From assembly GCF_014199525.1 (NCBI RefSeq), contig NZ_JACHNU010000005.1, positions 1 to 64,000 of the forward strand: a stretch of 64,000 nucleotides of DNA, in the 5' to 3' direction. The DNA is from Conexibacter arvalis. Lineage in GTDB: Bacteria > Actinomycetota > Thermoleophilia > Solirubrobacterales > Solirubrobacteraceae. The notes under the pieces were generated by a model, which was not told the DNA's origin, searched no databases, and saw nothing but the letters and a program-made list of their open reading frames with translations. Positions 28,278-48,660 of the stretch are shown piece by piece (the stretch's first letter is position 1; each line of letters opens with the position of its first letter). Made by a program: the position numbers and the translations under genes.

Positions 28278-28504
28278 CGGCGCGTCAGTTCGCGCACCTG
28301 ACCCTTCAGCTCCTCGCCGAGTCAGCCGATCCCAGCCAAGGCGGTGCGACCAGGCACCGCGGTGCACGCACGCAGCGCCCTTGGCGCGCCGGCGTTCGCC
28401 GTCCCTCGCTCCGCATCGAGAAACACGGAGGAGGGAACGGCGGGGCGTCGCGCGACGGATGGGCGGCAGTGGCTCCCCATCCCCGACAAAAGGTGCTCAA
28501 ACCG

Positions 28505-31500: not shown

Positions 31501-34500
31501 AGACGCCGTGCTCGAGATCAGCTTCAGAACGCTGGTCGCCGACGTCGCGGCCAACGCCCGCGGCACGACGCAGCTGTCGAACACGGCGACGCTGAGATGG
31601 ACCGACCCGGACGCCGGGAACCGCACGAGAACGACTCCGGCGGTCAGAACGACGATCGTCGAGCCGCGGCTGTCGCAGAGCAAGAGCGACGACAGAAACC
31701 CCGACCGCGTCATCCCCGGCGAGATCGTCGCGTACACGGTCAGAACCTCGAACGCCTCCGGCACCGGTCTCTCGACCGCCCATCAGGTCGTCGTCACCGA
31801 CGTCGTGCCGAGAGGCCTCACCCCGGTCGGCTCCGACGGCAGAGCGCTCGGCGACGGCGATGCCGTGCCCGAGACGCCGGGCGCCGTCTGGGATGAGACG
31901 ACGAGAACGATCACGTACACGATCGCCAGCCTCGCCCCGGGCGCCAGCAGCGAGCTGAGATACCGCGCCCGGGTCGACGACCCGGCGATCGGCGGCGCCG
32001 AGCTGACCAACAGAGCGGCGGCGCGGACGCAGAGCCTTCCCGACACGGCGCCGGGCAGACGGACGACCGGCGCCGACTACGCGGCCAGCTCGCAGGACAC
32101 GGTCCGCATCCAGGGCGCCCTGGTGGCCAAGTCGGTCACGCCGACGACCGCGACCATCGGCGAGCAGGTCAGATACGAGCTGCGCGTCTCGATACCGGCG
32201 AACATCGCGCTCTACGACGTGACGGTGACGGACCTGCTGCCGCAGCAGATCGCCTTCGACGACTACGTCGAGGAGAGATGCCTCAGCGGCTGCGACACCT
32301 ACGCCGGGGTCCAGACCTACGACGCGGTCGCCAGAGGCGACGGCACGACGACGATCGCCTGGGACCTCGGCGACATCATCGACCCGCTCGAGCAGCCGCG
32401 CGAGGTCCTGCTGACCTACACCGGCCACGTGAAGGAGAGCGACGGCGCCGGCGACGAGATCGTCGCGGGCGACACAGCGGTCAACGTCGCGACCGTCGGC
32501 TCCAACCGCAGCGACAGAGGCGGCTTCGATCCGACCAGAATCCCGACGACGTTCGAGGACCGCTCGCCTGAGACGAGAGCGACCGTCACGGTGATCGAGC
32601 CGAGACTGTCGATCGACAAGCAGGTGCAGGTCGGCTCCGGCAGCTTCTCCGACGGCCCGGCGACCGCCCACGCCGACGACACGCTCACCTACCAGCTGGT
32701 GGTGAGAAACAGCGGCGGCTCGCCGGCCCACGACGTCACCGTCACCGATCGGCCCGACGTCGAGCTGACCGACGTGACGCCGATCGCACAGGCCGGTGTC
32801 AGCGTGACGAAGGAGTGGAGCGCGGCCGACCGCGAGATCAGATGGCTGATCGACGGCCCGATCCCGGCGAACGGGAGCCGGACGCTCAGATACACGGCGA
32901 GATTCGTCGCCGCCGACCAGCTCGGCGACGGGCAGGCGGCCGACAACACCGCCGCGATCCCGAGCTACTTCGGCATCGCCAGAAGCGAGCGCGACGACCA
33001 CCCGGAGGTCGACTATCGCGACTACGACGACGGCGGCAGCGACGACGTGCGCGTGCTGCTCGACTTCCCGACGCTCGAGCTGACCAAGACGACCGGCCTC
33101 GGCGCCGGGCCGTCCTACCCGGAGACCGGGAACGCCGAGGTCGGCCAGGCCTACCCGTGGCGCGTCGTGGTCAGAAACACCTCCGCGACCGCGGCGGCGA
33201 GAGCGGTCGTCGTGACCGACACCCTGCCGGCGAACTGGTCGTACGCGACCGGCTCGTCCAGCGGCGCGGCCGAGCCCGAGGTGACGAGAAACGCGTCGGG
33301 CGACAGACTCGAGTGGACGATCGACTCGCTGGCGCCGAGCGCCACGGTGGCGATCGCCTACAGCGCGGTTCCGTCGCCGGCGGCCGCTGACCAGACCGGC
33401 GGCCTCGACCCGGCCGCGCACGTCAACACCGCGCTCGTCAGCTCCGCGAGAGACGAGGCCGGCAACAGCGGCAACGCCGACGGCCCGTACGGGACGCCGG
33501 AGGACGACGCGAGCGCGACGCTGCGGGTGCCCGAGCTGACGATCGCCAAGACGCCCAAGGGCGGCGCGGCGGTCGCGGGCACCGCGTCGAGCTTCGCGAT
33601 CGCGGTCAGAAACGACGGCGAGGTCTCCGCCCGCAACGTGGAGATCGCCGACGTGCTGCCGGCCGGGCTGAGATACGAGGACGACAGCGCGACCTCCGTC
33701 CCGGCGGGCGCCATCACCGAGAGATCGGTCGATCCCGGACCCGGCGCGGGCGAGACGACGATCGTCTGGCACGTCGACGAGCTGGCGGCCGGCGCGACGA
33801 CGACGATCACCCTCCCGGTGACCGTCGACGCCGACGTGCCCGACGGCACGACGCTGACGAACAGAGCGTCGGCGAGATCGGACGAGAAGCCCGGCCCGGT
33901 CGAGGACACCGGCAGCCTCGACGTGGCAGCCGAGACCGACCTCTCGATCGTCAAGAGCGGCGATGACAGATACGTGCCGGGCGAGGGCTACGAGTGGAGA
34001 CTCCGCGTCCGCAACCTCGGCCCCTCCGACGCGCAGGACGTCGTCGTGACCGACCCGCTGCCGGCCGGGACGAGCTTCGTCTCGGCCGACGGCGGCTGCA
34101 CGCATGCCGCGGGCACGGTCAGATGCGAGATCGGCACCGCGCCGGTCGGCTACGACAGAACGTTCACGCTGAGAGTCGCGGTCGACGAGGACGCGACCGG
34201 TCCGCTCGAGAACACCGCGACGGTCGCGACCACCACGACCGACACCGACCCCGACAACGACAGATCGACCCATGGGCCGACGGCCGACCCGCTCGCCGAC
34301 GTGACCGTCGAGAAGACGGCGGAGCCGAGCGCGATCGCGAGATTCGGCCAGACCGTCTTCACGCTGACGGTCCGCAACGTCGGCCCGTCGGTCGCGCGCG
34401 ACGTCGAGCTGGAGGACGCGCTGCCGGCCGGCCTCGGCTTCGTCGCGGTCGACGACAACCGCTGCACCGAGGCGGCGGGGACGATCGGCTGCGCCTTCGG

Positions 34501-36181
34501 CGACCTGCCGGTCGACGCCCCGATCGTCGTCCGCATCACCGCCACCGGCGAGCTGGAGGGCGCGTGGACGAACACGGCGACGGTCACGACGACGACGCCG
34601 CAGCCTCCGGGCGGCGGCGAGCCCGACAGCGACGACGCGATCGTGAACGTCGGCCCGGTCGCCGAGCTGGGGATCGTCAAGTCCGGCCCGGCGACGGTCG
34701 CCGCCGGCGGTGAGATCACCTGGCGGCTGGAGGTGACCAACAACGGGCCCGACCCGGCCACCGGCGTCACCGTGACCGACGCGCTGCCGGCCGGCACGAC
34801 GTTCGTCGCGGCGAGCGCCGGCTGCGCCGAGGCCGGCGGGACGGTCACCTGCGCGGTCGGCGATCTCGCCGTCGGCGAGAGCGCGGCGCTGGAGATCACC
34901 GCGACCGCGCCGATCGCGCTCGCCTCGACGACGGTAGTCAACACGGCCGCGGTCAGAGGCGATCAGATCGACGAGGATCCGTCCAACGACCGCGACGAGG
35001 CGATCACCGAGATCGGCCCGTCGACCGACCTGGCGATCGTCAAGCAGGGCCCGGCCGAGGTCGCGGCGGGCGGCACGGCCGCCTGGACGCTCGTCGTCAC
35101 CAACCACGGCCCGAGCACGGCGACCGGCGTCGTCGTCGCCGACGCGCTGCCGGCCGGCGTGACGTTCGGCTCGGCGACCCCGACCCAGGGCGCCGCCTGC
35201 ACGGCCGTCGGCCAGCAGGTGACGTGCCCGATCGGGACGCTCGCCGCCGGCGCGAGCGCGCAGGTCCAGGTGACCGGCGCGGTCGACGCCGCGCTGGAGG
35301 GCCAGACGCTCGTCAACGTCGCCGCGGTGACCGGCGAGCAGCCCGACCCGAACCCGGGCAACGACAGAAGCGAGCTGCCGACGCGCGTCGGGCCGCCGGA
35401 TGCGGGCAACTACGATCTCGCGCTCGACAAGCGGCTCGCGCCGGACGCGAGACCGGCGCTCGGCGCCACCTTCGGCTACGAGCTGGCGGTGACGAACGCC
35501 GGCCCGGCGAAGGGCGAGGCGGTGACGGTGACCGACACCGTGCCGAAGGCGCTGAAGGTGCGCTCGGCGAACGTGCCGGGCGGCAGCTGCTCCGTCAGAG
35601 GCCAGCTCGTCAGATGCGCGCTCGGCACGGTCGCGGCCGGTGAGACGCGGACGGTCGCGCTGCGCGTGACCGCGCTCGCTGCCGGCACGGTCCGCAACAC
35701 CGCTACGGTCGCCGCGCAGGTGGCCGACCGCGATCCGGCCAACGACCGCTCGACCGCCACGGTGCGGATCGCGGCGCCGAGAGCGGCGCTGCGCCTGCAG
35801 AAGCGCGTGGTCGGGAGAGCGAGCGTCAGACGCGGGGCGGTCGTCCGCTACCGCATCAGAGCGACGAACGCGAGCCGCAACGCGGCGGCTGGCGTGGTCG
35901 TCTGCGATCGGCTCCCGCGCGGCCTCGCGGTCCGCTCGAAGGGCGGCGGCAGACTGCGCCGCGGCAACCTCTGCTGGACGGTCGGGATGCTGCCGGGCAG
36001 AGCGTCGCGGACGTTCACGTTCAGCGCGCGCGTGCTGTCGGACGCGAGCGGCGTGCGGATCGCGAACGTCGCGACGGTGACCGCCTCCAACGCGCCGCGC
36101 CGCAGAGCGCGGGCCGTCGTGCGGATCAGCGACGGCGGCATCCTGCCGGGCTTCGCGAGAGGCGGCGGCGTGACCGGGTAG
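28505..36181 (+). CDS. Giant secreted DUF11-repeat surface protein
   Basis: A 2,558-residue protein with a signal peptide (RALAATLGLLLSLAGLLTLG, cleavage near APAHA-AG) and about 16 DUF11 (TIGR01451-type) beta-sandwich repeats. The repeats are recognised by recurring VTDxLPxG strands such as VTDALPAGTTFVAA and VADALPAGVTFGSA, each followed by a Cys-containing or LAPG segment. The last 130 residues are Arg-rich and end GGILPGFARGGGVTG. No sortase motif or membrane anchor is clear. It is probably a cell-surface or matrix adhesin. ATG 28505 is preferred over 28469 because it starts the signal peptide. AGA supplies a large share of its Arg codons. Confidence 0.9.
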   Translation: MHASVRFRALAATLGLLLSLAGLLTLGAPAHAAGTPNLSATIDSTRVLHGETVPVRFTVSNPAGQPYGYNLSYRVVLPEGVTYRGGGPVAPTQIAGPGRGETTLIFRNVSDLSRNATNVLAFEVDYDPGVYDVGDRFDVTAEAFANSDPRHVPRFDGGGAPVGPAADSYTGWTAPLTGTTTINAIEVEKDEPSWEGEILRGVHDHQTVYTVTVRNNEIRPTTGVDLVDYLPAGLEFLGCGGAGVDNSSAEEYPGAGEIDVESLAGCVAPLTVETVDVDPDGAGPLPRAVYTKVTWDAGTLAPGAERRFRYRAAIPIRENTMDWGGAAPAIDGAQAVNLDNNNGPETRDEQELTNYATASGDYDGRVSVTDGFHLTRTAEDWVVHKEGSTDQLAQGGLTTWTLTFETSEYRSVRDATVTDTVPNGLCPLGAINHTTENSADDDECDPVPGELPTAPYTDVTENSDGTFTVTWDADDFPELAQTGVSDRFTLRFTTRTRANWQRDFEPTTPILTRDTIENRVRTEGVAVVRCIDPTNCDPSGTEIVHDDGYGTGTTLPDESSAGQVAERPVIEKRVAESGTQCTTATYVTTVPVYHPGDRVCWKLHVTFPVGVDTSPQAIRDFLPPGATFEAGQEGPLNRPNGLNDVNATFHGADAANGLLAWTVDSGTVPTGRRVFERWFSTIVEPAGPNAVNGEVLGNLMKFASENTAGVSEPLRDARDIRLVTPVVDLVKGVQSIERSGRGTVGGPFPADTDHRVVQALDRVTYRLDVTNSGGQDAENVTVWDVLPSDYDCTLPGVTDFSHGGICLDGGADPDRIVWTLPTLARGATTTLTYTAVVPHDIGPARQLHNRAGVTAYSGRTNLDGDYWYYPADNIDPDNAPRANAPAADDPSDVYTNDAAISKSATTSVAETGNARAGQATIGEEITYTVRVTIPAGTTLGSNAVVTDLLDSATRQPYVSDSASATLDGAPLPAGFTLDDSGATPVVRFPDGFRVAPGDRDAVLEISFRTLVADVAANARGTTQLSNTATLRWTDPDAGNRTRTTPAVRTTIVEPRLSQSKSDDRNPDRVIPGEIVAYTVRTSNASGTGLSTAHQVVVTDVVPRGLTPVGSDGRALGDGDAVPETPGAVWDETTRTITYTIASLAPGASSELRYRARVDDPAIGGAELTNRAAARTQSLPDTAPGRRTTGADYAASSQDTVRIQGALVAKSVTPTTATIGEQVRYELRVSIPANIALYDVTVTDLLPQQIAFDDYVEERCLSGCDTYAGVQTYDAVARGDGTTTIAWDLGDIIDPLEQPREVLLTYTGHVKESDGAGDEIVAGDTAVNVATVGSNRSDRGGFDPTRIPTTFEDRSPETRATVTVIEPRLSIDKQVQVGSGSFSDGPATAHADDTLTYQLVVRNSGGSPAHDVTVTDRPDVELTDVTPIAQAGVSVTKEWSAADREIRWLIDGPIPANGSRTLRYTARFVAADQLGDGQAADNTAAIPSYFGIARSERDDHPEVDYRDYDDGGSDDVRVLLDFPTLELTKTTGLGAGPSYPETGNAEVGQAYPWRVVVRNTSATAAARAVVVTDTLPANWSYATGSSSGAAEPEVTRNASGDRLEWTIDSLAPSATVAIAYSAVPSPAAADQTGGLDPAAHVNTALVSSARDEAGNSGNADGPYGTPEDDASATLRVPELTIAKTPKGGAAVAGTASSFAIAVRNDGEVSARNVEIADVLPAGLRYEDDSATSVPAGAITERSVDPGPGAGETTIVWHVDELAAGATTTITLPVTVDADVPDGTTLTNRASARSDEKPGPVEDTGSLDVAAETDLSIVKSGDDRYVPGEGYEWRLRVRNLGPSDAQDVVVTDPLPAGTSFVSADGGCTHAAGTVRCEIGTAPVGYDRTFTLRVAVDEDATGPLENTATVATTTTDTDPDNDRSTHGPTADPLADVTVEKTAEPSAIARFGQTVFTLTVRNVGPSVARDVELEDALPAGLGFVAVDDNRCTEAAGTIGCAFGDLPVDAPIVVRITATGELEGAWTNTATVTTTTPQPPGGGEPDSDDAIVNVGPVAELGIVKSGPATVAAGGEITWRLEVTNNGPDPATGVTVTDALPAGTTFVAASAGCAEAGGTVTCAVGDLAVGESAALEITATAPIALASTTVVNTAAVRGDQIDEDPSNDRDEAITEIGPSTDLAIVKQGPAEVAAGGTAAWTLVVTNHGPSTATGVVVADALPAGVTFGSATPTQGAACTAVGQQVTCPIGTLAAGASAQVQVTGAVDAALEGQTLVNVAAVTGEQPDPNPGNDRSELPTRVGPPDAGNYDLALDKRLAPDARPALGATFGYELAVTNAGPAKGEAVTVTDTVPKALKVRSANVPGGSCSVRGQLVRCALGTVAAGETRTVALRVTALAAGTVRNTATVAAQVADRDPANDRSTATVRIAAPRAALRLQKRVVGRASVRRGAVVRYRIRATNASRNAAAGVVVCDRLPRGLAVRSKGGGRLRRGNLCWTVGMLPGRASRTFTFSARVLSDASGVRIANVATVTASNAPRRRARAVVRISDGGILPGFARGGGVTG

Positions 36182-37447: not shown

Positions 37448-37650
37448 GCGGCGGTCGGCCGCGGCCTCGCCGGCTTGCGCGAGCCCCGGCCGCGGGCGGT
37501 GGCGCCGGCAGCGGCGAGCCCGGCCGCGGCCGGTCGCGAGCGACATTGAGCGGGCCCGGCTCGCGAGCGGCGCGCTCGTCGCGCAGGACTTCCGTCCAGT
37601 TCCGGCCAGGCGCGATTGAAGCCGGCCGGCGCGGTCGTCATGATCGGCGC

Positions 37651-38511
37651 GTGCAATCGCTTCGACTCGACCGGCGCGGCCTGCTGCAGGCGGGCGCCGC
37701 CGGCGCCGCCGCCGTCACCGTCGCGGGCGGCTGGCAGCTGACGGAGGGCGTCGCGCTCGCGGCGCCGCTGCCCGACCACCTCCGCCGCGCGACCTGGAGC
37801 AACCTCGCCGACGGCGCCTTCGAGCTGCTCGCCGGAGACCGCGCGCTGCCGCTGCGGCTGACGCGGGTCGCCGACCTGCCGGTCGCCGCGTCGATCCCGG
37901 CGCTGCGCGGCCACGACGGCGCCTTCCTGCTGACCTTCGACGGCCCCGCGGGGATCGAGGGCGGCCTCCACCGGCTGCGCCATGCGCAGCTCGGCGAGCT
38001 CGAGCTGTTCGTCGCGCCGGTCGCGAGGGAGGCGGCGACGCGCAGCTACGAGGCGGTCGTCGACCGCACGATCCGGATCGCCGGGATCAACGAGGAGCCG
38101 GTCGTCGTCGACCCGGCGCGCGTCGTCCAGCCGTCCGGCGGCCCGAGCCCCGCGGCCGTCGCGGCGTCCGGCGCGCCCGTGGCGGGGCGCCGCCCGGTCG
38201 CGCCCCGGCGCCCGCGCGTGACCCGCGCCGCCGTCAGACGCGGGACCGCCCGCCGCGTCGCGGTCGCGGAGCTGCGGCTCGCCGACGCCGGCGCGGTCGT
38301 CGCCGCGAGCGCGGCGCTGCGCCGCGACGGCAGGCTGGTCGCGCGCGCGACGGCGAGACCGCGCTCCGGCCCCGGCGGCCGCCGCCTGCGGCTGCGCTTC
38401 GCGGCGCGCAGAGGGCGGACGCTCGCCCGCGGCCGTCATCAGCTGACGGTGACGCTGGTCGCCCGCGACGGCACGCGCACGACCATCCGCCGGACGGTGA
38501 CCGTCGCGTGA
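37651..38511 (+). CDS. DUF6916 domain protein with Tat-like signal
   Basis: A 286-residue protein that starts with a Tat-like signal LDRRGLLQAGAAGAAAVTVA. A DUF6916-type domain follows (residues 40-145, with FELLAGDRALPLRLTRV, LTFDGPAGIEGGLHRLRHAQ and LELFVAPV). The tail is an Arg/Ala-rich beta domain (about 185-286). It starts at GTG 37651, and its stop overlaps the next DUF6916 gene. It faces the collar-protein genes, suggesting a shared extracytoplasmic role. The family function is unknown. Confidence 0.75.
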   Translation: MQSLRLDRRGLLQAGAAGAAAVTVAGGWQLTEGVALAAPLPDHLRRATWSNLADGAFELLAGDRALPLRLTRVADLPVAASIPALRGHDGAFLLTFDGPAGIEGGLHRLRHAQLGELELFVAPVAREAATRSYEAVVDRTIRIAGINEEPVVVDPARVVQPSGGPSPAAVAASGAPVAGRRPVAPRRPRVTRAAVRRGTARRVAVAELRLADAGAVVAASAALRRDGRLVARATARPRSGPGGRRLRLRFAARRGRTLARGRHQLTVTLVARDGTRTTIRRTVTVA

Positions 38512-38816
38512 TCGAGCACGACCTCGCGCAGCTGAGCGCCGAGCTGTTCGCGCCGCATGTCGGCGAGCCGTTCGCCGTGCGGGCGGAGGGGCAGATCGAG
38601 CTCACGCTGGTGCTGACCGAGGCGTGCACGCTGCGCGACGCCGCCTCCGGCGAGCGCCGCGCACCGTTCTCGCTGGCTTTCAGAGGCCCGGAGGCTCCGC
38701 TGCTGGCGCAGCAGATCGTGCCGCTCGAGCACCCGGTGCTCGGTCGGCTCGACCTCTTCCTGGTGCCGCTCGGCGTCGACGCCGACGGCGCTCGCTACGA
38801 GGCCGTCTTCACCTGA
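38508..38816 (+). CDS. DUF6916 family protein
   Basis: This 102-residue protein consists only of the DUF6916-type domain: LAPHVGEPF-like start, APFSLAFRGPEAPLLAQQIV, HPVLGRLDLFLVPLGVD and YEAVFT. It aligns along its full length with the core of the preceding, Tat-exported protein, so the pair probably arose by duplication. It has no signal peptide. GTG 38508 overlaps the upstream stop. Confidence 0.75.
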   Translation: MIEHDLAQLSAELFAPHVGEPFAVRAEGQIELTLVLTEACTLRDAASGERRAPFSLAFRGPEAPLLAQQIVPLEHPVLGRLDLFLVPLGVDADGARYEAVFT

Positions 38817-38918
38817 GCGACGGGCGCGGCGCGGTCGCGGGCGCCGGCGCGGGCCCGCGCGCGTACGGCGCGGGGCCTGCGCGGCGAGCATGCGGCGCGT
38901 GGCCCGGGATGCGCGCGG

Positions 38919-39425
38919 TCAGCTCGCGGCGCCGTGGCCGCCCGGCCGTCGCTCCCAGCGCTGGTAGACGCCCTCGTCGGCGACCGGCGTGAAGCCGAGC
39001 CGCGCGTAGAGCCGCTGCGCGGGGTTGGTGCGCTCGACGTGGATCGTCGCCGGCACCCCGCGCGCCTCGGCCTCGGCGAGCACCGGCTCCAGCAGCCGCT
39101 TCCCGATCCCGGCGCCGCGGAAGGCCGGCATCAGCGCGACGTCGACGATCCGCGTCTCCCGCTCCCAGCGGCCGACGAGCAGCCGCCCGGCCGGCACGCC
39201 GTCGACCAGCACCAGCTCGAAGGTCGTGTCGCGGTAGTGCGCGTAGTGGCGGCTCTGGGCGTCGAACTGCTGCGCGAGGAAGGCGGCCTTCTGCTCCGGC
39301 GTGAACGGCACAGGCGCCAGCTCGTGCTCGCGGGTGCTGGCGTAGAGCGCGAGCAGGAATGGCTGATCTGCCGGCTCGATCGGCCGCAGCGCGATCTCCG
39401 CCCGCCGGCCGCCGGTCGCTACCAC
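38919..39425 (-). CDS. GNAT family N-acetyltransferase
   Basis: A 168-residue acetyltransferase with IALRPIEPADQPFLLALYAS at the N-terminus, the acetyl-CoA motif FRGAGIGKRLL, and NPAQRLYARLGFTPV near the end. GTG 39425 overlaps the stop of the third collar gene (GTGGTAG), making it the last gene of the collar operon. It may modify a product of the same operon, but the substrate is unknown. Confidence 0.85.
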   Translation of the reverse strand: MVATGGRRAEIALRPIEPADQPFLLALYASTREHELAPVPFTPEQKAAFLAQQFDAQSRHYAHYRDTTFELVLVDGVPAGRLLVGRWERETRIVDVALMPAFRGAGIGKRLLEPVLAEAEARGVPATIHVERTNPAQRLYARLGFTPVADEGVYQRWERRPGGHGAAS

Positions 39426-39961
39426 CGCTGCGGGAAGACGCCCTGGAGCGCGATGCAGAATCTGAACGCGAGCGAGGGCGGGCGGTTGTTGTGCGGCCAG
39501 GTGCCGCCGGCCGGCGCCAGCGCCTGCGGCGACAGCGGGACGAGGCTGCCGCTCGTGTTCGACTGGTAGGCGTTGCCGGCGGTCGAGCGCGCCAGCGCGC
39601 GGTCGGACGCTGGCCCCTGCAGATCGGCGGGGACCGTGGCGGCGGCCGCCGCCGCGTGGTCGTGGGCGGGGATCTCGCTCTCCAGCAGCGTGACCGTCGC
39701 GCTGCCGAGGCGCTCGCCGCGCTCCGCCGTCGGAGCGCCTGGCGCCGGGTTGCCCGCTGAGTTGACGCCGATCGCCGCCGCACCGCGCAGGTCGGGCAGC
39801 GCGAAGGTGCTCTTCCCGTCGCCGCCGTAGTCGGTTCCGAGCAGGGAGAAGAGCGCCGTGTTCTGCGCGATCGGCATCTCCTGGCCGTCGCACGCGGCCC
39901 AGCCGCTGGGGGCGTAGTTGAAGCCGAAGACGCGGATCTCGGCGAGGAATGGATCGGTCAT
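39419..39961 (-). CDS. Phage-tail-collar (microcystin-dependent-like) protein 3
   Basis: A 180-residue tail-collar-domain protein with FLAEIRVFGFNYAPSGWAAC, DGQEMPIAQNTALFSLLGT, YGGDGKSTFALPDLRGAAAI and a C-terminal RFCIALQGVFP. The family includes phage tail fibres and the MdpB-like proteins of bacteria. It overlaps the preceding gene by 4 nt (ATGA). No other phage structural gene is present nearby. Confidence 0.9.
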   Translation of the reverse strand: MTDPFLAEIRVFGFNYAPSGWAACDGQEMPIAQNTALFSLLGTDYGGDGKSTFALPDLRGAAAIGVNSAGNPAPGAPTAERGERLGSATVTLLESEIPAHDHAAAAAATVPADLQGPASDRALARSTAGNAYQSNTSGSLVPLSPQALAPAGGTWPHNNRPPSLAFRFCIALQGVFPQRW

Positions 39962-40473
39962 GCCTGGGAGGGGAACTCGCCGTAGAGGGAGATGACGTAG
40001 CTGACGGCCGTGCTCGGACCCATGTTGTCGTGCGGCTGCGAGCCGCCGGCCGGCGCGACGGCGTTGGCCGGCAGCGGCGTGTCGGGCGTCTCGCGCACGT
40101 ACGGCGCGAGCGCCGGCGGGCTGGCGAGCAGCCGGCCGTCGGGGCCGTCGGCGACGCCGCCGCCTCTCGCCGCCATCAGCAGGTGCTGATGCTGCGGGAT
40201 CTGCGCGACCGTCAGGGTGATCTGGTCGACCCCGCCCGCCTCGCCGAGCGCGTAGGGCTGCAAGAGCGCGGTGCCCGAGCTCATGTGGATGGGGACGCGT
40301 CCGCGCAGGTCGGGCAGCCGGAAGGTCTCCTCGCCGTCGCCGCCGTAGGTCGTGCCGATCGCGATGAAGAGCGACTCGTACTCTGCGATCGGGAGCAGCT
40401 GGCCGTCGCAGAATCTCCAGCCGTTCGGCTCGAAGTTGCCGGCGAACATGCGGATCTCACCGATGTATGGCAT
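39958..40473 (-). CDS. Phage-tail-collar (microcystin-dependent-like) protein 2
   Basis: A 171-residue paralogue: YIGEIRMFAGNFEPNGWRFC, DGQLLPIAEYESLFIAIGTT, YGGDGEETFRLPDLRGRVPI, ending SYVISLYGEFPSQA. It is the middle gene of three and starts 3 nt after the stop of the first. The shared GxIR...GW...CDGQ...LxxxLGTxYGGDG...LPDLRGR order is intact. Confidence 0.92.
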   Translation of the reverse strand: MPYIGEIRMFAGNFEPNGWRFCDGQLLPIAEYESLFIAIGTTYGGDGEETFRLPDLRGRVPIHMSSGTALLQPYALGEAGGVDQITLTVAQIPQHQHLLMAARGGGVADGPDGRLLASPPALAPYVRETPDTPLPANAVAPAGGSQPHDNMGPSTAVSYVISLYGEFPSQA

Positions 40474-40476
40474 CGC

Positions 40477-40971
40477 TCAGTTCTGGCTGGGGAAGATGCC
40501 CGCGAGCGCGATGCACCAGTTGAGCGTCAGGTAGGGCTGCCGGTTCTCGTGCGGGAGCGTGCCGCCGCGGCCGGAGATCGTGGCAGGGTGGAGCGCCGTC
40601 GTCGGCGATCCTTCGCGGTAGAGGTTGGCGGCGGCAGCGAGCAGCCCCGGGGTCGACTGGTTGGCCGGCGCCGCCGAGGCGCGCATCGCGTGCGTGTGCT
40701 CGGGCAGCTCGCCGATCGTCAGGGTGTGGAACTCCGCGCCCATGGCCTGTCCCCGGAAGACGCCGTCGCCGACGTGGATCGGGACGCGTCCGCGCAGGTC
40801 GGGCAGGTTGAAGGTCGTCTGGGCGTTGCCGCCATAGGTCACGCCGAGCAGCGCGTACAGCGCCTGGTTCTGGTTGATCTGCAGCGTCTGGCCGTTGCAG
40901 AGCGCCCAGCCTCTCGGCGGGAAGGCAAAGCTCATCAGGCGCAGTTCGCCGAGGAAGGGAGTGTCGGACAT
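40477..40971 (-). CDS. Phage-tail-collar (microcystin-dependent-like) protein 1
   Basis: A 164-residue paralogue, first in the operon: FLGELRLMSFAFPPRGWALC, NGQTLQINQNQALYALLGVT, YGGNAQTTFNLPDLRGRVPI, ending NWCIALAGIFPSQN. ATG 40971 is chosen, since an upstream frame to 41202 has no collar homology and overlaps the divergent regulatory region. It is transcribed divergently from the giant cadherin-like gene 201 bp away. Confidence 0.92.
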   Translation of the reverse strand: MSDTPFLGELRLMSFAFPPRGWALCNGQTLQINQNQALYALLGVTYGGNAQTTFNLPDLRGRVPIHVGDGVFRGQAMGAEFHTLTIGELPEHTHAMRASAAPANQSTPGLLAAAANLYREGSPTTALHPATISGRGGTLPHENRQPYLTLNWCIALAGIFPSQN

Positions 40972-41096
40972 CGCGTGACGGGGGACGGGAGGTCGGCGCA
41001 GCCTAGCGGGTGGGGCGGCGGCCGGCGCGGGAATCGGCCGATCCGGGCTGGCGCGGTGGAACATCCGTCCGCGACCTCTGGCGCAGCCGTCCGCGA

Positions 41097-41121
41097 GCGC
41101 CGATATATACCCTTTCGGCGC
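41097..41121. promoter_or_regulatory. AT-rich hairpin in divergent promoter region
   Basis: The arms GCGCCGA/TCGGCGC enclose the loop TATATACCCTT, the most AT-rich spot in the 201-bp gap between the collar operon and the giant gene. TATATA could act as a -10 on either strand. No clear -35 is seen. Confidence 0.4.
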
Positions 41122-41172
41122 GTCGCCGCTCGGCGAGCGCTGATCGGTCGCCGCCTCCGAACGGACTCGCCT

Positions 41173-44100
41173 GTGCTCTGCAACCCCGCCGTCGCGCGCC
41201 ACGCCTCGCTCGCGCGCCTCTCCTGCGCGCTCGTCGCGCTCGCCTGCGTCGCCGCCGCCGCGCCCGCGGCCGCCGCGGCGAGCGATCGCGCGCGGGAAGG
41301 CGCGCCGGTCGCGTCGGCGGCGGCTGCCGCGACGAGCGGCGCCGCGCGTGGCGGCGGGCCGGTCGCGTCAGGGGCGGCGGCCGCGCGCACGACCCGCGCC
41401 GCGGCGCAGCGAGCGGCGCTGCGCGCGCTGAGAGCGGGGCGCGGGAAGGCGCCGCTGATCGTCTTTCGCGGCGGCACGCCGTTGAAGCCGGGGACGCGGA
41501 TCGCCTCCGCCGGGCTCGAGCGGCTCCCGCGCGCGCTCGCGCGCGGATCCCGGACGCGGGCGAAGCTGCTGGACGCCGCCGCGGTTCAGGTCGTCAGGGC
41601 GCCGCGGGTGGCGCGCGTCGGCGCCGAGCCGGCGTGGTTCTTCTACGCCGACGAGGCGCCGTTCCAGGCCTACCAGCACCGCGGCCGCGTCGTGCTCGTC
41701 GGCGTCCGCAGCGGACGCGTGACGGTCTCCAGACGGTTCTCGTGGCCGCCGCTGCTGAACGGCCGGATGCCGTGGTTCCTGCGCAGCCATGCGGGCTACC
41801 GCGACCCGCGCGCCCACGCCTTCACGCGCCTGTGGCGGCCGCAGCGGCCGCAGACGACGGCGCGGTCGAGGGGCCTCGCCGCGAGCGCGAGCGGCCCGCT
41901 CGGCGCCGTCGCGCCGCCCCTGCTGGGCCCGCTCGCCGGGGCGGCCGGCGCGACGACCGTCCCGACCGCCGCGCAGCGCCGCGTCGCCGGCGCGCTCGCC
42001 GACGAGGGCGCCTGCGCGATCCGCGTCGGCGACACGCTCGGCAACTTCTTCGACGCCAGCTCCTTCGACCGCACGCGCGCGCTGCTCGGCGGCTTCTTCA
42101 ACGAGCTGGCCGGCGCCGACGGCCGCTTCGTCAGCGTCCGCTACCGCGTCGCGACCGGCACGACGCTGCGGCGCTACGTCGAGCGGCTGATCGCGCGGCG
42201 CGGCTGCGGCGAGCTGCTGCTGTACGTCGCCGGCGGCGGCTACCTGCGCGGCGAGCCGGCGATCAGCGTCGGCGTGAAGGGCCGGCGGGACGGCAGGGTC
42301 GAGCAGCAGGTCGTGACCGCCGCGAGCCTGCGCGCGCTGATCGCCGCCAACCCCGGAGCCCGCTTCCATCTGCTGCTCGACGCGCCCGGCTCCGGCGGCT
42401 TCCTGCGCCGGCTCGACGACCTGCCCAACCTGAAGCTGTTCCTCTCCTCGTCGCGGGCCGGCGAGACGAGCTTCGCCGCGCTGCCGACGCTCGTCGCGAT
42501 CGACGGGACGCGGCTGCGCAACGGCTACAACGCCGACGGCCTGCTCGAGTTCTCCAACCGCGGCCTGCAGGGCCTGCGCTGCTTCCGCGACGACGCGGCC
42601 GAGGTCGACGCCGCGCTCGCCGCCCGCGCGCGCGGGCTGGCGCCGTCGTTCCTGGCGTGGATGCTGCGCCGCGCCTACGCGCTCTGCGGCGAGGGCAGCC
42701 TCGTCGAGGCGATCGGCGACGCGCCGCGCCCGTTGCTGGAGACGCCCGGCTACACGGTCGTCCCGCCGGCGCAGCTGCCGTCCGCGCCGCAGCCGGGAAC
42801 GCCGCCGCCGCCGAAGCCGCCGCTCCCGATCGATCCGCCGCCGCCCGGCCCGGCGAACGCCGCCCCGACGGCCGCGCCGGTCTCCGTCGAGACCGAGGAG
42901 GACACGACGGTCGCCGTCGCGCTCGCCGGCGCCGACCCCGACGGCGACCCGCTCACGTACACGACCGCTGCGCACGTGCCCGGCGGCGCGGTCACCGGTG
43001 AGGGCGCGCAGCGGACCTTCACGCCGGCTGCCGACTTCAACGGGATCGCGACCTTCGACTACACCGTCTCCGACGGCCGCGGCGGCAGCGCGACGGCGAC
43101 CGTCACCGTGACCGTCACGCCGGTCGACGACCCGCCTGTCGTCGACCCCGGCGCCGGCGCCGCGCGGTACACGGACAGCGACCCGCCGGTCGTCGTCGCC
43201 CCGGCGCTGACCGTCGCCGACGTCGACGACGAGCAGCTCGACCGCGCGACGGTGACGATCGCGGACGGCTACGAGCCCGGCGGCGACCGCCTCTCATTCA
43301 CGGACCAGAACGGGATCGCGGGCGACTGGGACGCCGCCGCCGCGACGCTGACGCTGAGCGGCGCCGCGTCGCTCGCCGCCTACCAGGCGGCGCTGCGCAC
43401 GGTCGCCTTCGACACGCCGCTGGCCGTCCCGTCGGAGGCTCCCCGCACGCTGCGCTTCGTCGTCGAGGGCGGCGGCGCCGCGTCGGCGCCGGCGACGCGC
43501 GGCCTGGAGGTCGACCGCCGCCATCCGCCGGTGCTCGGCGGCGCCGCCGTCGACGCGGCCTACACCGAGGGCGATCCGGCCGTCGCCGTCGCGCCGTGGC
43601 TGACGGTCTCCGACGCCGACAGCGCGACGCTCGCCTCGGCGACCGTCGCCCTCGCCGGAGCCGGTCACTTCCCGGCCGAGGACGAGCTGGTCTTCGACGC
43701 CCAGGCCGGCATCACCGGCAGCTTCGACGCCGCTGCCGGCGTGCTGGAGCTGACCGGGTCCGCCTCCGTCGCCGCGTGGCAGGCGGCGCTGCGGTCGGTC
43801 CGCTACCGCAACCTCAGCGAGGACCCGACGACGACCGACCGGGCGATCCGCTTCCGCGTCAGCGACGGCGAGGTCTGGAGCGACGAGCTGCTCGTCGGAG
43901 TGGGGGTGACCGCGGTCGACACGCCGCCCCGCCTGAGAGCCGGCGGCGGTGCGCCGACCTACGCCGAGGGCGACGCCGGCGTCGTCGTCGACCCGGCCGT
44001 CGAGGTCGTCGACCCCGACAGCGCGCAGCTGACCGGCGCGACGGTCGCGATCGGCGACGGCTACGACGCCGCCGGCGACGAGCTGCTGTTCGACGACCAG

Positions 44101-47100
44101 CGCGGGATCGCCGGGAGCTGGGACGGCGCCAGCGGGACGCTGGCGCTGACCGGATCGGCCTCGGTCGCCGACTACCAGGCGGCGCTGCGCACCGTGCGCT
44201 TCCGCAGCACGAGCGCGAACCCCGCGCCCGGCGCCCGCACCGTCTCGTTCACGGCCGCCGACGCGACCGGAAGCGGGACGCCCGTGACGACGACCGTCGC
44301 GTTCGACCTGCTCGACGACGCGCCGGTCGTGACGACCAGCGGCGGCGCCACCGTCTGGAGCGGCGGCGACGTCGCCGTCGACGGCGGCCTGACCGTCGCC
44401 GACCCTGACGACGTCCAGCTGACCGGCGCGACCGTCCGGATCGCCGCCGGCTACGTGGCGAGCGCCGACGCGCTCGTCTTCGCCGACCAGAGCGGCATCA
44501 GCGGCAGCTGGGACGCGCTCACCGGCACGCTGACGCTGACCGGCGCGGCCTCGCTCGCCCACTGGCAGACGGCGCTGCGCTCGGTCGCCTACCGCCACTC
44601 CGGGGCGCTGCTGGACAGCAGCGCCCGCACGGTCTCGTTCACGGTCGAGAACGCGCGCAGCTCGGCAGCGGCGACGAAGTCGATCACGTTCGGGGACGCG
44701 CCGGAGGTGACGTTGCCGGGCGGTGGGCTCTCCTACACCGAGAACGACACCGCGACGCCTGTCGACGCGACCCTGACCGTGACCGACGCCGACAGCGCGA
44801 GGCTGACGAGCGCCGCCGTGACGATCGAGGCCGGCCACGCGCCCGGCGAGGACGTGCTGTCGGCCGACGCCGGCGCCACGTCGATCGCGGTCGACTTCGA
44901 CGCCGCCGCCGGCGCGCTGGAGCTGACCGGCGAGGCGGCGGTCGCCGACTACCAGCAGGTGCTGCGGACGGTCGCCTACCGCAACACGAGCGATGACCCG
45001 TCGACCGCGGCGCGAACGCTTCGCTTCACCGCGAGCGACGGCCAGCTGACCGGCGCCGCGACGACGACGGTGACGGTCACCGCCGTCAACGACCCGCCGG
45101 CGCTGACGACCAGCGACGGCAGCGCCTCCTACGTCGAGGACGACATGACCGGCGTCGCCGTCGATCCCGGCCTGACGATCGCCGACCCCGACAGCGCGCT
45201 GCTGACGGGCGGGACGGTCGAGATCGTCGGCGGGTTCGCCGCCGGTGAGGACCAGCTGGCGTTCATCAACCAGAACGGCATCACCGGCATCTGGTCGGCC
45301 GCGACGGGGACGCTGTCGCTCACCGGCGAGGCGACCGTCGACCAATGGCGCGACGCGCTGCGCTCGATCCGCTACCTGAACGCCGACACGATCGACCCGT
45401 CGACCGCGCCCCGCACCGTCTCCTTCCAGGTCTCCGACGGCAGCGACGCGAGCGCCGTGAGAACCCGCCAGGTGACCGTCACGGCCGTCAACGACGCGCC
45501 GCAGATCGCCTCCGGCGCGACGCTCGCCTACACCGAGAACGACCCCGCGACCGCGATCGACTCGGCGCTCACGCTGACCGACGGCGACAGCCCGACGCTG
45601 AGCGGCGCGACGGTGACGATCGGCGCCGGCCACGCCGCCGCCGAGGACGAGCTCGGCTTCGTCGACCAGAACGGGATCGCCGGCGCCTTCGACAGAGCGA
45701 GCGGCAGACTGACGCTGAGCGGCACGGCGAGCGTCGCCGACTACCGCGCCGCGCTGCGCTCGGTCACCTACGCCAACGTTTCCGAGGACCCGTCGGAGAC
45801 GGCGCGCACGGTGACGTTCACGGTCGACGACGGCGGCGCCGTCGACGCGACGGCGAGCGCGACGGCGACGATCACGGTGGCGAAGGTCAACGACGCGCCG
45901 ATCGTGCCCGACGCGAGCGCGAGCGCGGTCGGCAACACGCCGCTGTACTCCGGCACCACGGCGCCGGCCGGACTGCCGGCGACGACGGCGACCGGCGCCG
46001 CGGCCAACGTGCTGACCGGCGCCTCCGACGTCGACGGCCCCGGCCCGCTGCGCGTCGACGTCGCCGCCTCGCAGGCGACCGGCGACAGAGGCGGCGCGGT
46101 CGCCTGGAACGCCGACGGCAGCTACACCTACCGCCCCGCCGCCGGCGTCACCGGCAGCGAGCGGATCGAGTTCGTCGTGACCGACCAGGGCAGCCCGGCC
46201 GCCACGACGACCGCGACGTTGACGGTGACGATCGAGAAGCGCGTCTTCTACGTCGACAACGCGGCGCCGGCAGGCGGCGACGGCCGCGCCGAGATGCCGT
46301 TCACCACGCTCGCCGCGGCCGACACGGCCGCCGACGCGGCCGCCGACACGATCTACGTGTTCCACGGCGACGGCAGCGCGAACGGGCTCGGCGGCGGCGT
46401 CGCGCTGCTCGCCGGCCAGCGGCTGCTGGGCGAGTCCGAGACGCTGACGGTCGACGGCGCCGAGCTGCTCGCGGGCACGCCCGGCGCCCGCCCGCAGCTG
46501 ACCGGCACCGTCACGCTCGCCTCCGGCAACGTCGTCGCCGGCCTCGCGATCCGCGCGACCGCCGCCGGCGCCCGCGCGATCGGCGGCACCGCCTCGGCCG
46601 TCGGCGGCACGCTGCGCGATCTGGCGATCAGAAGCGACGACGGCAGCGGCCTCGTGCTCGACGGGACGAGCGGGACGTGGACCGTCGATAGCGTCGCGGT
46701 CACGGCCCGAGGCGGGACCGGCATCGCGCTGCTCGGCGCCGGAGCCGTCGACTTCCGCGGGACCAACTCCGTGACGGTCGAGGCGGGCGCCGGGCTCGCC
46801 TTCGGCGGCACGCGGACCAGCGGCGCGATCGGCTCGGTCGCGGTCACCACCGCCGGCGCCGAGACCGGGATCTCCGTCACCGACGGGAGCGGCTCGCTGT
46901 CGATCCCGTCGCTCGCGATCCAGACCGGCGGCGTCGGCCTCTCGCTGGCCAGCTCCGAGGGGCTGGAGGTCGGCGGTCCGACGTCGACCGTCTCCGCCGG
47001 CGGCACGGCGGTCGTGACGGCCTCGACGCGAGCGCTGAGCAGCCCGCCGCGGATCGAGCTGGCGAGCGCGAGCTCCTCCGGCGGCAGCCACGGCCTCCGT

Positions 47101-48660
47101 CTGGCCGGCCTCGGCGCGACCGGCTCGTTCAGAGCGGCCGGCGGCGCGCTCTCCGGCCACATCGTCTCCGAGCTGACCGTCGACGGCGGCGCCGGCACCG
47201 TCGAGTACGGCGGCACGATCGGCGACGGCAGCGGCCTCAGCGCCGAGGTGCTCAACCGCACCGGCGGCGCCGTCACCCTCAGTGGCTCCGTCACCGACGG
47301 CGCGGACGCGGGCGGCGGCATCGTGCTGAGCGGCAGCAGCGGCGGCACGACGACCTTCACCAGCGACGTGGCGCTCTCGACCGGCGCCGGCGCGGCGATC
47401 AGGTTCACCGCCGGGGGCGGTCATGCGCTCGCCCTCACCGGCGGCAACCTCGGCGTCGCGACGACCACCGGCGCCGGTCTCGAGGCGACCGGCAGCGGCG
47501 GCACCGTCACCGTCACCGGCGCCAACAACCGAATCGCCTCGAACGGCGGCGGCACCGCGGTGCGGATCGCCGGAGCGACGATCGGCGCCGACGGCGTCAC
47601 CCTGCGCTCCGTCACGCAGACCGGCGGGACGAACGCGATCGTCGTCGACGGAGCGGGCACGGCCGGTGCGTTCAGCGTCACCGGGGCCGGCGGCGACGGC
47701 AGCGGCGGCGTGATCCAGGACACGACCGGCGCGGCCGTCCTGCTGCACGACGTCAGCGCGCAGCTGAGATCGCTGTCGATCCTGCGCGCCGGCGACGACG
47801 GCATCCGCTACTCGGCCGACGGCGGCGCCCGGAGCGTGACGGTCGACGGCGTCACCGTCAGCGACAGCGCGGGCGATCACGTCCAGCTGACGAGCGGGCC
47901 GGCGTCGAACGCGACCGTGACCGCGACGGTGTCGCTGGCGAAGGTCGCCAACGCGGTCGGAGGCGGCGGCCACGGCGGCGGGCTCACCGTCAACCCGGGC
48001 GGGACCGGCAGCTGGGACGTCACGCTCTCCGACAACATGATCACCGGCGCCGCGGGCGAGGCGATCACGATCGACACGCCCGGCTCGCTGACCGACTCGC
48101 AGGCGGTCACCATCCGTGCCCGCCTGCTGGGCAACAGCATCGGCGCCGCGGCGATCGCCGGATCCGGCGCCTGGAGCGGCAACGGCGTCGGGATCCGCTC
48201 CAACGGCGACGCGACGGTGCGGGTCCGCCTCGAAGGCAACACGATCCGCCGCTACGCGACGGCGGGGATCGCGCTGATCCAGAACGACGGCAGAGGCGCG
48301 CTGCACGCGACGGTGGTCGGCAACACGCTCGCCAACCCGGACGGCGGCGGCCAGCCGGTCGACGGCATCACCGCCGTCGCGGGCGGTGCCGCCGCCGACG
48401 ACGGCGGCACCCTCTGCGTGGCGCTCGGGCAGCCGCCGGCCAACCAGCTCGACGGCGCGACCGCCGCGGGCGGCTACGGGATCTGGCTGCGCCAGCGCGA
48501 CCAGAGCACGATCCAGCTGCCCGGCTACAGCGGCACGCCGCGCGACACGACCGCCATCCTGAGCTACCTGAACGCCATCCAGCCGGGCACGAACCAGGCG
48601 CAGCACGTCCCGACCGGCGGCGGCTACGTCAACGCGGCCGGGGGCTGCCTGCAGCCGTAG
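41173..48660 (+). CDS. Giant secreted protein: degenerate caspase-like domain, cadherin-like repeats, beta-helix
   Basis: A 2,495-residue protein. The signal peptide is LARLSCALVALACVAAAA with an Ala-rich cleavage site. Residues about 275-460 resemble a caspase-like fold (LLLYVAGGGY, LRALIAANPGARFHLLLDAP, FLSSSRAGETSFAALP), but Gly355 and Pro405 occupy the catalytic His and Cys positions. Then come a Pro-rich linker, one tandem-95/cadherin-like domain (560-655), seven about 120-residue repeats marked by LTGxASVADYQAALRTVRF (656-1575), an Ig/VCBS-like domain, and a Gly/Thr-rich parallel beta-helix to the end. It is probably surface-exposed. GTG 41173 is the best start but not certain. Confidence 0.82.
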   Translation: MLCNPAVARHASLARLSCALVALACVAAAAPAAAAASDRAREGAPVASAAAAATSGAARGGGPVASGAAAARTTRAAAQRAALRALRAGRGKAPLIVFRGGTPLKPGTRIASAGLERLPRALARGSRTRAKLLDAAAVQVVRAPRVARVGAEPAWFFYADEAPFQAYQHRGRVVLVGVRSGRVTVSRRFSWPPLLNGRMPWFLRSHAGYRDPRAHAFTRLWRPQRPQTTARSRGLAASASGPLGAVAPPLLGPLAGAAGATTVPTAAQRRVAGALADEGACAIRVGDTLGNFFDASSFDRTRALLGGFFNELAGADGRFVSVRYRVATGTTLRRYVERLIARRGCGELLLYVAGGGYLRGEPAISVGVKGRRDGRVEQQVVTAASLRALIAANPGARFHLLLDAPGSGGFLRRLDDLPNLKLFLSSSRAGETSFAALPTLVAIDGTRLRNGYNADGLLEFSNRGLQGLRCFRDDAAEVDAALAARARGLAPSFLAWMLRRAYALCGEGSLVEAIGDAPRPLLETPGYTVVPPAQLPSAPQPGTPPPPKPPLPIDPPPPGPANAAPTAAPVSVETEEDTTVAVALAGADPDGDPLTYTTAAHVPGGAVTGEGAQRTFTPAADFNGIATFDYTVSDGRGGSATATVTVTVTPVDDPPVVDPGAGAARYTDSDPPVVVAPALTVADVDDEQLDRATVTIADGYEPGGDRLSFTDQNGIAGDWDAAAATLTLSGAASLAAYQAALRTVAFDTPLAVPSEAPRTLRFVVEGGGAASAPATRGLEVDRRHPPVLGGAAVDAAYTEGDPAVAVAPWLTVSDADSATLASATVALAGAGHFPAEDELVFDAQAGITGSFDAAAGVLELTGSASVAAWQAALRSVRYRNLSEDPTTTDRAIRFRVSDGEVWSDELLVGVGVTAVDTPPRLRAGGGAPTYAEGDAGVVVDPAVEVVDPDSAQLTGATVAIGDGYDAAGDELLFDDQRGIAGSWDGASGTLALTGSASVADYQAALRTVRFRSTSANPAPGARTVSFTAADATGSGTPVTTTVAFDLLDDAPVVTTSGGATVWSGGDVAVDGGLTVADPDDVQLTGATVRIAAGYVASADALVFADQSGISGSWDALTGTLTLTGAASLAHWQTALRSVAYRHSGALLDSSARTVSFTVENARSSAAATKSITFGDAPEVTLPGGGLSYTENDTATPVDATLTVTDADSARLTSAAVTIEAGHAPGEDVLSADAGATSIAVDFDAAAGALELTGEAAVADYQQVLRTVAYRNTSDDPSTAARTLRFTASDGQLTGAATTTVTVTAVNDPPALTTSDGSASYVEDDMTGVAVDPGLTIADPDSALLTGGTVEIVGGFAAGEDQLAFINQNGITGIWSAATGTLSLTGEATVDQWRDALRSIRYLNADTIDPSTAPRTVSFQVSDGSDASAVRTRQVTVTAVNDAPQIASGATLAYTENDPATAIDSALTLTDGDSPTLSGATVTIGAGHAAAEDELGFVDQNGIAGAFDRASGRLTLSGTASVADYRAALRSVTYANVSEDPSETARTVTFTVDDGGAVDATASATATITVAKVNDAPIVPDASASAVGNTPLYSGTTAPAGLPATTATGAAANVLTGASDVDGPGPLRVDVAASQATGDRGGAVAWNADGSYTYRPAAGVTGSERIEFVVTDQGSPAATTTATLTVTIEKRVFYVDNAAPAGGDGRAEMPFTTLAAADTAADAAADTIYVFHGDGSANGLGGGVALLAGQRLLGESETLTVDGAELLAGTPGARPQLTGTVTLASGNVVAGLAIRATAAGARAIGGTASAVGGTLRDLAIRSDDGSGLVLDGTSGTWTVDSVAVTARGGTGIALLGAGAVDFRGTNSVTVEAGAGLAFGGTRTSGAIGSVAVTTAGAETGISVTDGSGSLSIPSLAIQTGGVGLSLASSEGLEVGGPTSTVSAGGTAVVTASTRALSSPPRIELASASSSGGSHGLRLAGLGATGSFRAAGGALSGHIVSELTVDGGAGTVEYGGTIGDGSGLSAEVLNRTGGAVTLSGSVTDGADAGGGIVLSGSSGGTTTFTSDVALSTGAGAAIRFTAGGGHALALTGGNLGVATTTGAGLEATGSGGTVTVTGANNRIASNGGGTAVRIAGATIGADGVTLRSVTQTGGTNAIVVDGAGTAGAFSVTGAGGDGSGGVIQDTTGAAVLLHDVSAQLRSLSILRAGDDGIRYSADGGARSVTVDGVTVSDSAGDHVQLTSGPASNATVTATVSLAKVANAVGGGGHGGGLTVNPGGTGSWDVTLSDNMITGAAGEAITIDTPGSLTDSQAVTIRARLLGNSIGAAAIAGSGAWSGNGVGIRSNGDATVRVRLEGNTIRRYATAGIALIQNDGRGALHATVVGNTLANPDGGGQPVDGITAVAGGAAADDGGTLCVALGQPPANQLDGATAAGGYGIWLRQRDQSTIQLPGYSGTPRDTTAILSYLNAIQPGTNQAQHVPTGGGYVNAAGGCLQP

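What the first reader, a model, noticed from the sequence alone, without database searches (positions are those of the whole stretch)
42010..42530. Caspase-like domain with both catalytic residues lost
The order LLLYVAGGGY ... RALIAANPGARFHLLLDAPGSG ... FLSSSRAGETSF follows the caspase fold pattern (YxSGHG ... DACxSG ... SS.A.E.S). Gly355 stands where the His is expected and Pro405 where the Cys is expected. The strand order and length are kept, so the domain may now bind rather than cut, or serve as a secretion or assembly module.
Basis: partly seen in the sequence, partly recalled or inferred. Interest (0 to 1): 0.6.

Follow-up and report, generated by a model that had tools for sequence, protein, structure and literature searches.

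The report
Dead legumain/caspase-like domain on giant adhesin
A giant secreted surface protein of a soil actinobacterium carries, near its start, a protein-cutting domain of the legumain/caspase kind whose two catalytic residues were lost in an ancestor but whose fold has been kept, so it probably now holds or assembles the protein instead of cutting.

Summary
A secreted ~2,495-aa protein (41173-48660, +) has at residues ~268-515 a clan CD (legumain C13/caspase C14-like) domain with Gly355 at the His position and Pro405 at the Cys position. Seventeen homologues in Solirubrobacteraceae and one other Thermoleophilia family lack both residues: Cys->Pro in 17/17, His->Gly/Ala/Arg/Ser. Five shorter relatives keep His and Cys (GHG...CxSG), and one passes Pfam's Peptidase_C13 cut-off. 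A profile built only from dyad-keepers finds the window domain (E 7e-14). An AlphaFold model puts Gly355 and Pro405 just after strands 3 and 4, where clan CD has its dyad; its nearest solved folds are caspases and legumain (modest scores). On an unrooted tree the loss is one event. The domain evolves under constraint, and no genome searched held both forms.

The gene sits beside three phage-tail-collar genes, a GNAT and DUF6916 genes, a module found across phyla next to giant surface proteins that often carry a lineage-specific export or anchoring domain. I infer that the dead domain fills that place: a non-catalytic docking or assembly module. Homology and loss are well supported; this role is inference. 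Pseudo-caspases are known; this is a new, extracellular, C13-like variant.

The parts
41173..48660 (+). giant secreted repeat protein (~2,495 aa) that carries the finding; GTG start followed by a signal peptide
   Evidence: open frame; signal-peptide-like start read from sequence; homologues of 2,175-3,998 aa
41386..41838 (+). conserved N-terminal domain (residues ~72-222; W-F-Y-x-D ... HPGRVVLVG..TG.V ... WPPL..G..P.FL ... Y), no Pfam family; shared with the dyad-keeping relatives
   Evidence: alignments; no Pfam match
41974..42717 (+). degenerate clan CD (legumain C13/caspase C14-like) domain, residues ~268-515
42235..42237 (+). Gly355 at the catalytic His position (G/S/R/A in 17 inactive homologues, His in 5 short relatives)
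42385..42387 (+). Pro405 at the catalytic Cys position (Pro in 17/17 inactive homologues, Cys in 5 short relatives)
42013..42015 (+). Cys281, invariant in active and inactive forms; possible disulfide with Cys345 across strands 1 and 3
   Evidence: strand positions from the model; the disulfide is inference
42205..42207 (+). Cys345, invariant partner candidate
42781..42855 (+). proline-rich linker between the domain and the repeats
   Evidence: sequence
42856..46131 (+). cadherin-like / Big_9 repeat region
   Evidence: Pfam PF17963, PF17892, PF17803
48178..48657 (+). conserved C-terminal tail (LPGYxG...C.QP), shared with collar-linked giants of Deinococcus
   Evidence: hmmsearch E 1e-15 to 1e-20
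40477..40971 (-). phage tail collar domain protein, copy 3, divergent from the giant
   Evidence: PF07484, 96.5 bits
39958..40473 (-). phage tail collar domain protein, copy 2
   Evidence: PF07484, 98 bits
39419..39961 (-). phage tail collar domain protein, copy 1
   Evidence: PF07484, 93.2 bits
38919..39458 (-). GNAT acetyltransferase of the module
   Evidence: PF00583, 50.1 bits
38508..38816 (+). DUF6916 protein of the module
   Evidence: PF21880, 104.1 bits
37501..38511 (+). frame holding a second, Tat-signal-like DUF6916 protein (exact start not settled)
   Evidence: PF21880, 61.3 bits

Best explanation
Residues ~268-515 descend from a secreted, active clan CD cysteine peptidase (legumain C13/caspase C14-like) that already carried the same N-terminal domain. 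In the Thermoleophilia lineage that includes the long, repeat-bearing forms beside the tail-collar module, both catalytic residues were lost (His->Gly and drifting, Cys->Pro and fixed) while the fold was kept. Shown by computation: homology, loss of the dyad, single split on the tree, constraint, module context. Inferred: the domain no longer cuts; with the N-terminal domain it works as a non-catalytic docking or assembly module that holds the giant fibre at the cell surface, in the place where relatives of the module in other phyla carry an export or anchoring domain. The Cys281-Cys345 pair probably staples the domain outside the cell.
For: Dyad-keeping relatives and alignment; Pfam C13 for L015 and just under cut-off for L040; profile links in both directions; legumain and GPI transamidase lead the PDB sequence hits, weakly; model and Foldseek, with Gly355 after strand 3 and Pro405 after strand 4; tree 98/98 between forms; dN/dS 0.31-0.78; collar genes beside 11 of 14 long forms, the other three filling their contigs; end domains of giants in other phyla: IAT_beta, TPS, autotransporter, SLH; shared C-terminal tail with Deinococcus giants.
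Against: The docking role has no direct evidence; it rests on position and on the absence of another recognised anchor. Some collar-linked giants (Pontibrevibacter, Rhizobium) show no recognised anchor either, so an anchor is not obligatory. A few inactive forms are short and lack the repeats (L011 540 aa, L014/L024 ~700 aa), so loss is not strictly tied to the giant. The model rests on two sequences and Foldseek scores are modest. dS is unreliable at 75% GC.
Confidence: 0.55

Rival explanations
1. Pseudo-protease regulator: like c-FLIP with caspase-8, the domain pairs with an active relative in the same cell and controls it.
For: Known pseudo-caspases work this way (FLIP(L), PMC7586951, abstract); the best Foldseek hit is the caspase-8:c-FLIP complex.
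Against: The own genome has no other family member than the inactive paralogue, and no PF00656 or PF01650 match. None of the 13 genomes with inactive forms showed a dyad-keeper.
Confidence: 0.07
2. Ligand-binding module: the old substrate groove now recognises a peptide or glycan, e.g. on other cells or on the collar proteins.
For: Residues near the old site are strongly kept in inactive forms (D403, P405, N419, G367 invariant; Q379 88%), beyond what a mere spacer needs; collar genes are adjacent.
Against: No ligand is known; the same conservation could be structural.
Confidence: 0.25
3. Still catalytic through other residues.
For: Two invariant Cys and several invariant polar residues exist.
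Against: No His is conserved in the domain; the invariant Cys are equally kept in the dyad-bearing forms and lie at the starts of strands 1 and 3, away from the active-site ends of strands 3 and 4.
Confidence: 0.04
4. A relic on the way out, without function.
For: The His position drifts (G/S/R/A).
Against: 17 homologues with open frames, fixed Pro405 and D403, domain length kept, dN/dS below 1 in all pairs tested.
Confidence: 0.04
5. Not clan CD: another alpha/beta fold with chance resemblance.
For: The window domain alone reaches no Pfam peptidase cut-off; some non-caspase folds appear among Foldseek hits.
Against: Profile from dyad-keepers alone E 7.2e-14; L015 is Pfam C13; the mixed profile picks up a true C14 caspase, L082.
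Confidence: 0.05

Closest known systems
Peptidase family C13 (legumain, GPI transamidase), clan CD
   Same: Nearest curated family: L015 passes its cut-off; legumain and GPI transamidase lead PDB profile hits, weakly; His/Cys positions align.
   Different: Catalytic pair absent; fused to a bacterial N-terminal domain and cadherin-like repeats; window protein itself below the Pfam cut-off.
Prokaryotic caspase homologues and pseudo-orthocaspases (family C14; PMC6426788)
   Same: Same clan fold; natural loss of the His-Cys pair with the fold kept.
   Different: Pseudo-orthocaspases have Tyr/Ser in place of His/Cys; here Gly (or A/R/S) and Pro, in a secreted C13-like lineage outside the groups named in that paper's abstract.
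c-FLIP(L) and Raptor
   Same: Non-catalytic caspase-fold domains used for binding (own knowledge; FLIP(L) PMC7586951); both kinds appear among Foldseek hits.
   Different: Eukaryotic and intracellular; no active partner found here.
Collar-linked giant surface proteins of other phyla (Deinococcus, Aminobacter, Ruegeria, Paenibacillus, Comamonas)
   Same: Collar triplet and GNAT next door; Deinococcus giants share the C-terminal tail.
   Different: They carry a lipobox-like start, IAT_beta, TPS, autotransporter or SLH ends; none of those scanned showed a clan CD domain.

Membership tests
Clan CD peptidase fold | alpha/beta/alpha sheet with the dyad directly after strands 3 and 4 | tested here: met
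   Model strands 85-91 and 135-141; Gly355 = model residue 93, Pro405 = 143; caspases and legumain lead Foldseek, scores modest. The last core strand was not confidently modelled.
Clan CD peptidase fold | significant sequence relation to proven clan CD families | tested here: met
   Via dyad-keepers: E 7.2e-14 to the window; L015 passes Pfam C13. Direct match of the window to Pfam: none.
Active C13/C14 peptidase | catalytic His and Cys | tested here: not met
   Gly355 and Pro405; 17/17 homologues of the group lack both.
Active C13/C14 peptidase | proteolytic activity | not testable with these tools
   Needs purified protein.
Peptidase C14 (PF00656) | Pfam score above cut-off | tested here: not met
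   No match in the protein or genome.
Peptidase C13 (PF01650) | Pfam score above cut-off | tested here: not met
   Window: no match; relative L015: met.
Pseudo-orthocaspase (PMC6426788) | Tyr and Ser replace His and Cys in a p20 domain | tested here: not met
   Gly and Pro instead.
Collar-linked giant surface protein | adjacent triplet of PF07484 collar genes and GNAT | tested here: met
   39419-40971 and 38919-39458; collar genes conserved in relatives.
Collar-linked giant surface protein | C-terminal tail shared across phyla | tested here: met
   Deinococcus giants E 1e-15 to 1e-20; not seen in the other phyla tested apart from a weak Aminobacter match.

The most novel reading that the evidence does not exclude
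A clan CD protease was domesticated, by loss of its catalytic pair, into a surface-docking domain for giant fibres of a collar-gene module, taking the place that autotransporter barrels, TPS or S-layer domains hold in other phyla.
Probability: 0.3. Interest if true: 0.7.

Novelty: new variant of a known kind. Interest (0 to 1): 0.5.

Why it matters
Dead proteases that keep their fold are well known in eukaryotes and in photosynthetic bacteria. Here dyad-bearing and dyad-less forms of one secreted family survive within one bacterial class, with the change falling near the gain of a giant adhesin-like body. That makes it possible to test how a protease becomes a structural part. It also draws attention to a cross-phylum module (three collar proteins, GNAT, DUF6916, giant surface protein) whose purpose is unknown.

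Tried and rejected
Direct Pfam recognition of the window domain: none. Genome scan with a single protein: one relative, which appears to lie on the same contig as L010/L059. Viral contigs: no relative. DUF4347, remembered as a similar N-terminal domain of giant adhesins: absent from the own genome, but the search rang in no control, so no conclusion; no useful paper. Two-domain model: poor (pLDDT 46), so the N-terminal domain's fold stays unknown. Phylum-wide profile search: apart from one true caspase, nothing outside the class. Considered and rejected: active-partner regulator, alternative dyad, relic (see rivals). Weak hit L044 (G166) looks spurious. More family members were not handed to the structure predictor because its stated rule did not name loci from the genome search.

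Full report
The feature. The open frame at 39949-48660 contains a plausible gene starting at GTG 41173, followed by a signal peptide. It encodes ~2,495 residues: a conserved N-terminal domain (residues ~72-222), the domain in question (~268-515), a proline-rich linker, cadherin-like/Big_9 repeats and a conserved C-terminal tail. The window's genome is of the family Solirubrobacteraceae by inference: L026 is named as such, and its contig has the same length as G075:C429, a genome the tool places in the same family as the window.

The dyad. Among 20 aligned homologues, 17 have Pro at the Cys position, with Gly (10), Ala (4), Arg (2) or Ser (1) at the His position. These 17 come from 13 genomes. 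Three others, L016 (797 aa), L040 (615 aa) and L015 (425 aa), have GHG and CxSG. Two more dyad-keepers were found later: in G336 (L041/L071; AGHG...QSCFSG) and G053 (L091; AGHG...QACKSG). Those seen in full are short and share the N-terminal domain.

Is it clan CD? L015 passes the Pfam Peptidase_C13 cut-off and L040 falls just below it (22.4 against 22.8). BLASTP and hhalign join the window domain to L015 and L016. A profile made only of dyad-keepers finds the window domain at E 7.2e-14. The mixed profile, run over the phylum, reaches L082, a true Peptidase_C14, and among PDB sequences its leading hits are legumain and GPI transamidase, all weak. The inactive-only profile has no meaningful PDB hit. 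The model has the expected order of strands and helices, with Gly355 and Pro405 two residues after strands 3 and 4; caspases, legumain and Raptor lead Foldseek at E 4e-3 and weaker. The dyad at the ends of strands 3 and 4 is the clan CD arrangement (PMC4357240). Together this is strong for homology and moderate for the model itself.

Nature of the loss. In a maximum-likelihood tree the dyad-keepers lie on one side of a branch with support 98/98; the tree is unrooted, so direction is inferred from the universal dyad of the clan and from the wider spread of dyad-keepers over families (f1, f3, f5, f7) than of inactive forms (f1, f12). dN/dS is 0.31-0.78 in all domain pairs tested, with the caveat of extreme GC. 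Cys281 and Cys345 are invariant in both forms; no His is conserved in the domain.

Context. Three collar genes (PF07484) stand divergently next to the giant, with a GNAT and two DUF6916 genes beyond. Collar genes are beside 11 of 14 long homologues, including the second copy in this genome (L067), complete or cut by a contig or region end; the remaining three giants fill their contigs. None of the four dyad-keepers with longer flanks has collar genes nearby. On plasmids of other phyla the triplet recurs, usually with a GNAT and a giant protein. Those giants carry IAT_beta (Aminobacter), TPS (Comamonas), autotransporter barrels (Ruegeria, Phyllobacterium, Sinorhizobium) or SLH (Paenibacillus); Deinococcus giants begin with a lipobox-like motif. 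Pontibrevibacter and Rhizobium giants showed no such domain. The Deinococcus giants share the C-terminal tail of the window protein.

Mechanism. The giant in this lineage has no recognised anchor at its C-terminus, and its N-terminal pair of domains sits at an end, where others carry the export or anchoring part. The simplest reading is that the dead domain is a docking or assembly module; ligand binding by the old groove is the main rival. Regulation of an active partner is unlikely, since none was found in this genome.

Novelty. Pseudo-caspases and pseudo-orthocaspases are known (PMC6426788, PMC7586951). A secreted C13-like one on a giant collar-linked surface protein was not found in the papers searched, which is a limited search. 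I call it a new variant of a known kind.

Noticed in passing
window 37501-48660; own second copy L067 (G000:C3): Cross-phylum module: three tandem tail-collar genes, GNAT, DUF6916 and a giant repeat surface protein; collar triplets with a giant also seen in Deinococcota, Proteobacteria and Paenibacillus. No paper in the library mentions DUF6916.
   Followed up: partly
window 48178-48657: The C-terminal tail of the giant is shared with collar-linked giants of Deinococcus, so the two ends of the protein have different histories.
   Followed up: partly
window 41386-41838: Conserved N-terminal domain without a Pfam family, before the clan CD domain in active and inactive forms; could be a former propeptide (guess).
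   Followed up: partly
window 28469-36181: Second giant protein (2,570 aa) made of many DUF11 repeats, with a 2,684-codon open frame on the opposite strand, probably an effect of high GC.
   Followed up: no
window 47177-47269: tRNA-Leu called on the minus strand inside the giant gene; no Rfam support, probably false.
   Followed up: yes
L084:22295-22804 (Tateyamaria omphalii plasmid): A separate small 'caspase family protein' lies about 8 kb from a collar triplet.
   Followed up: no
L064 (G105:C125): Two tandem ~700-aa inactive homologues on one short contig, shorter than the giants.
   Followed up: no
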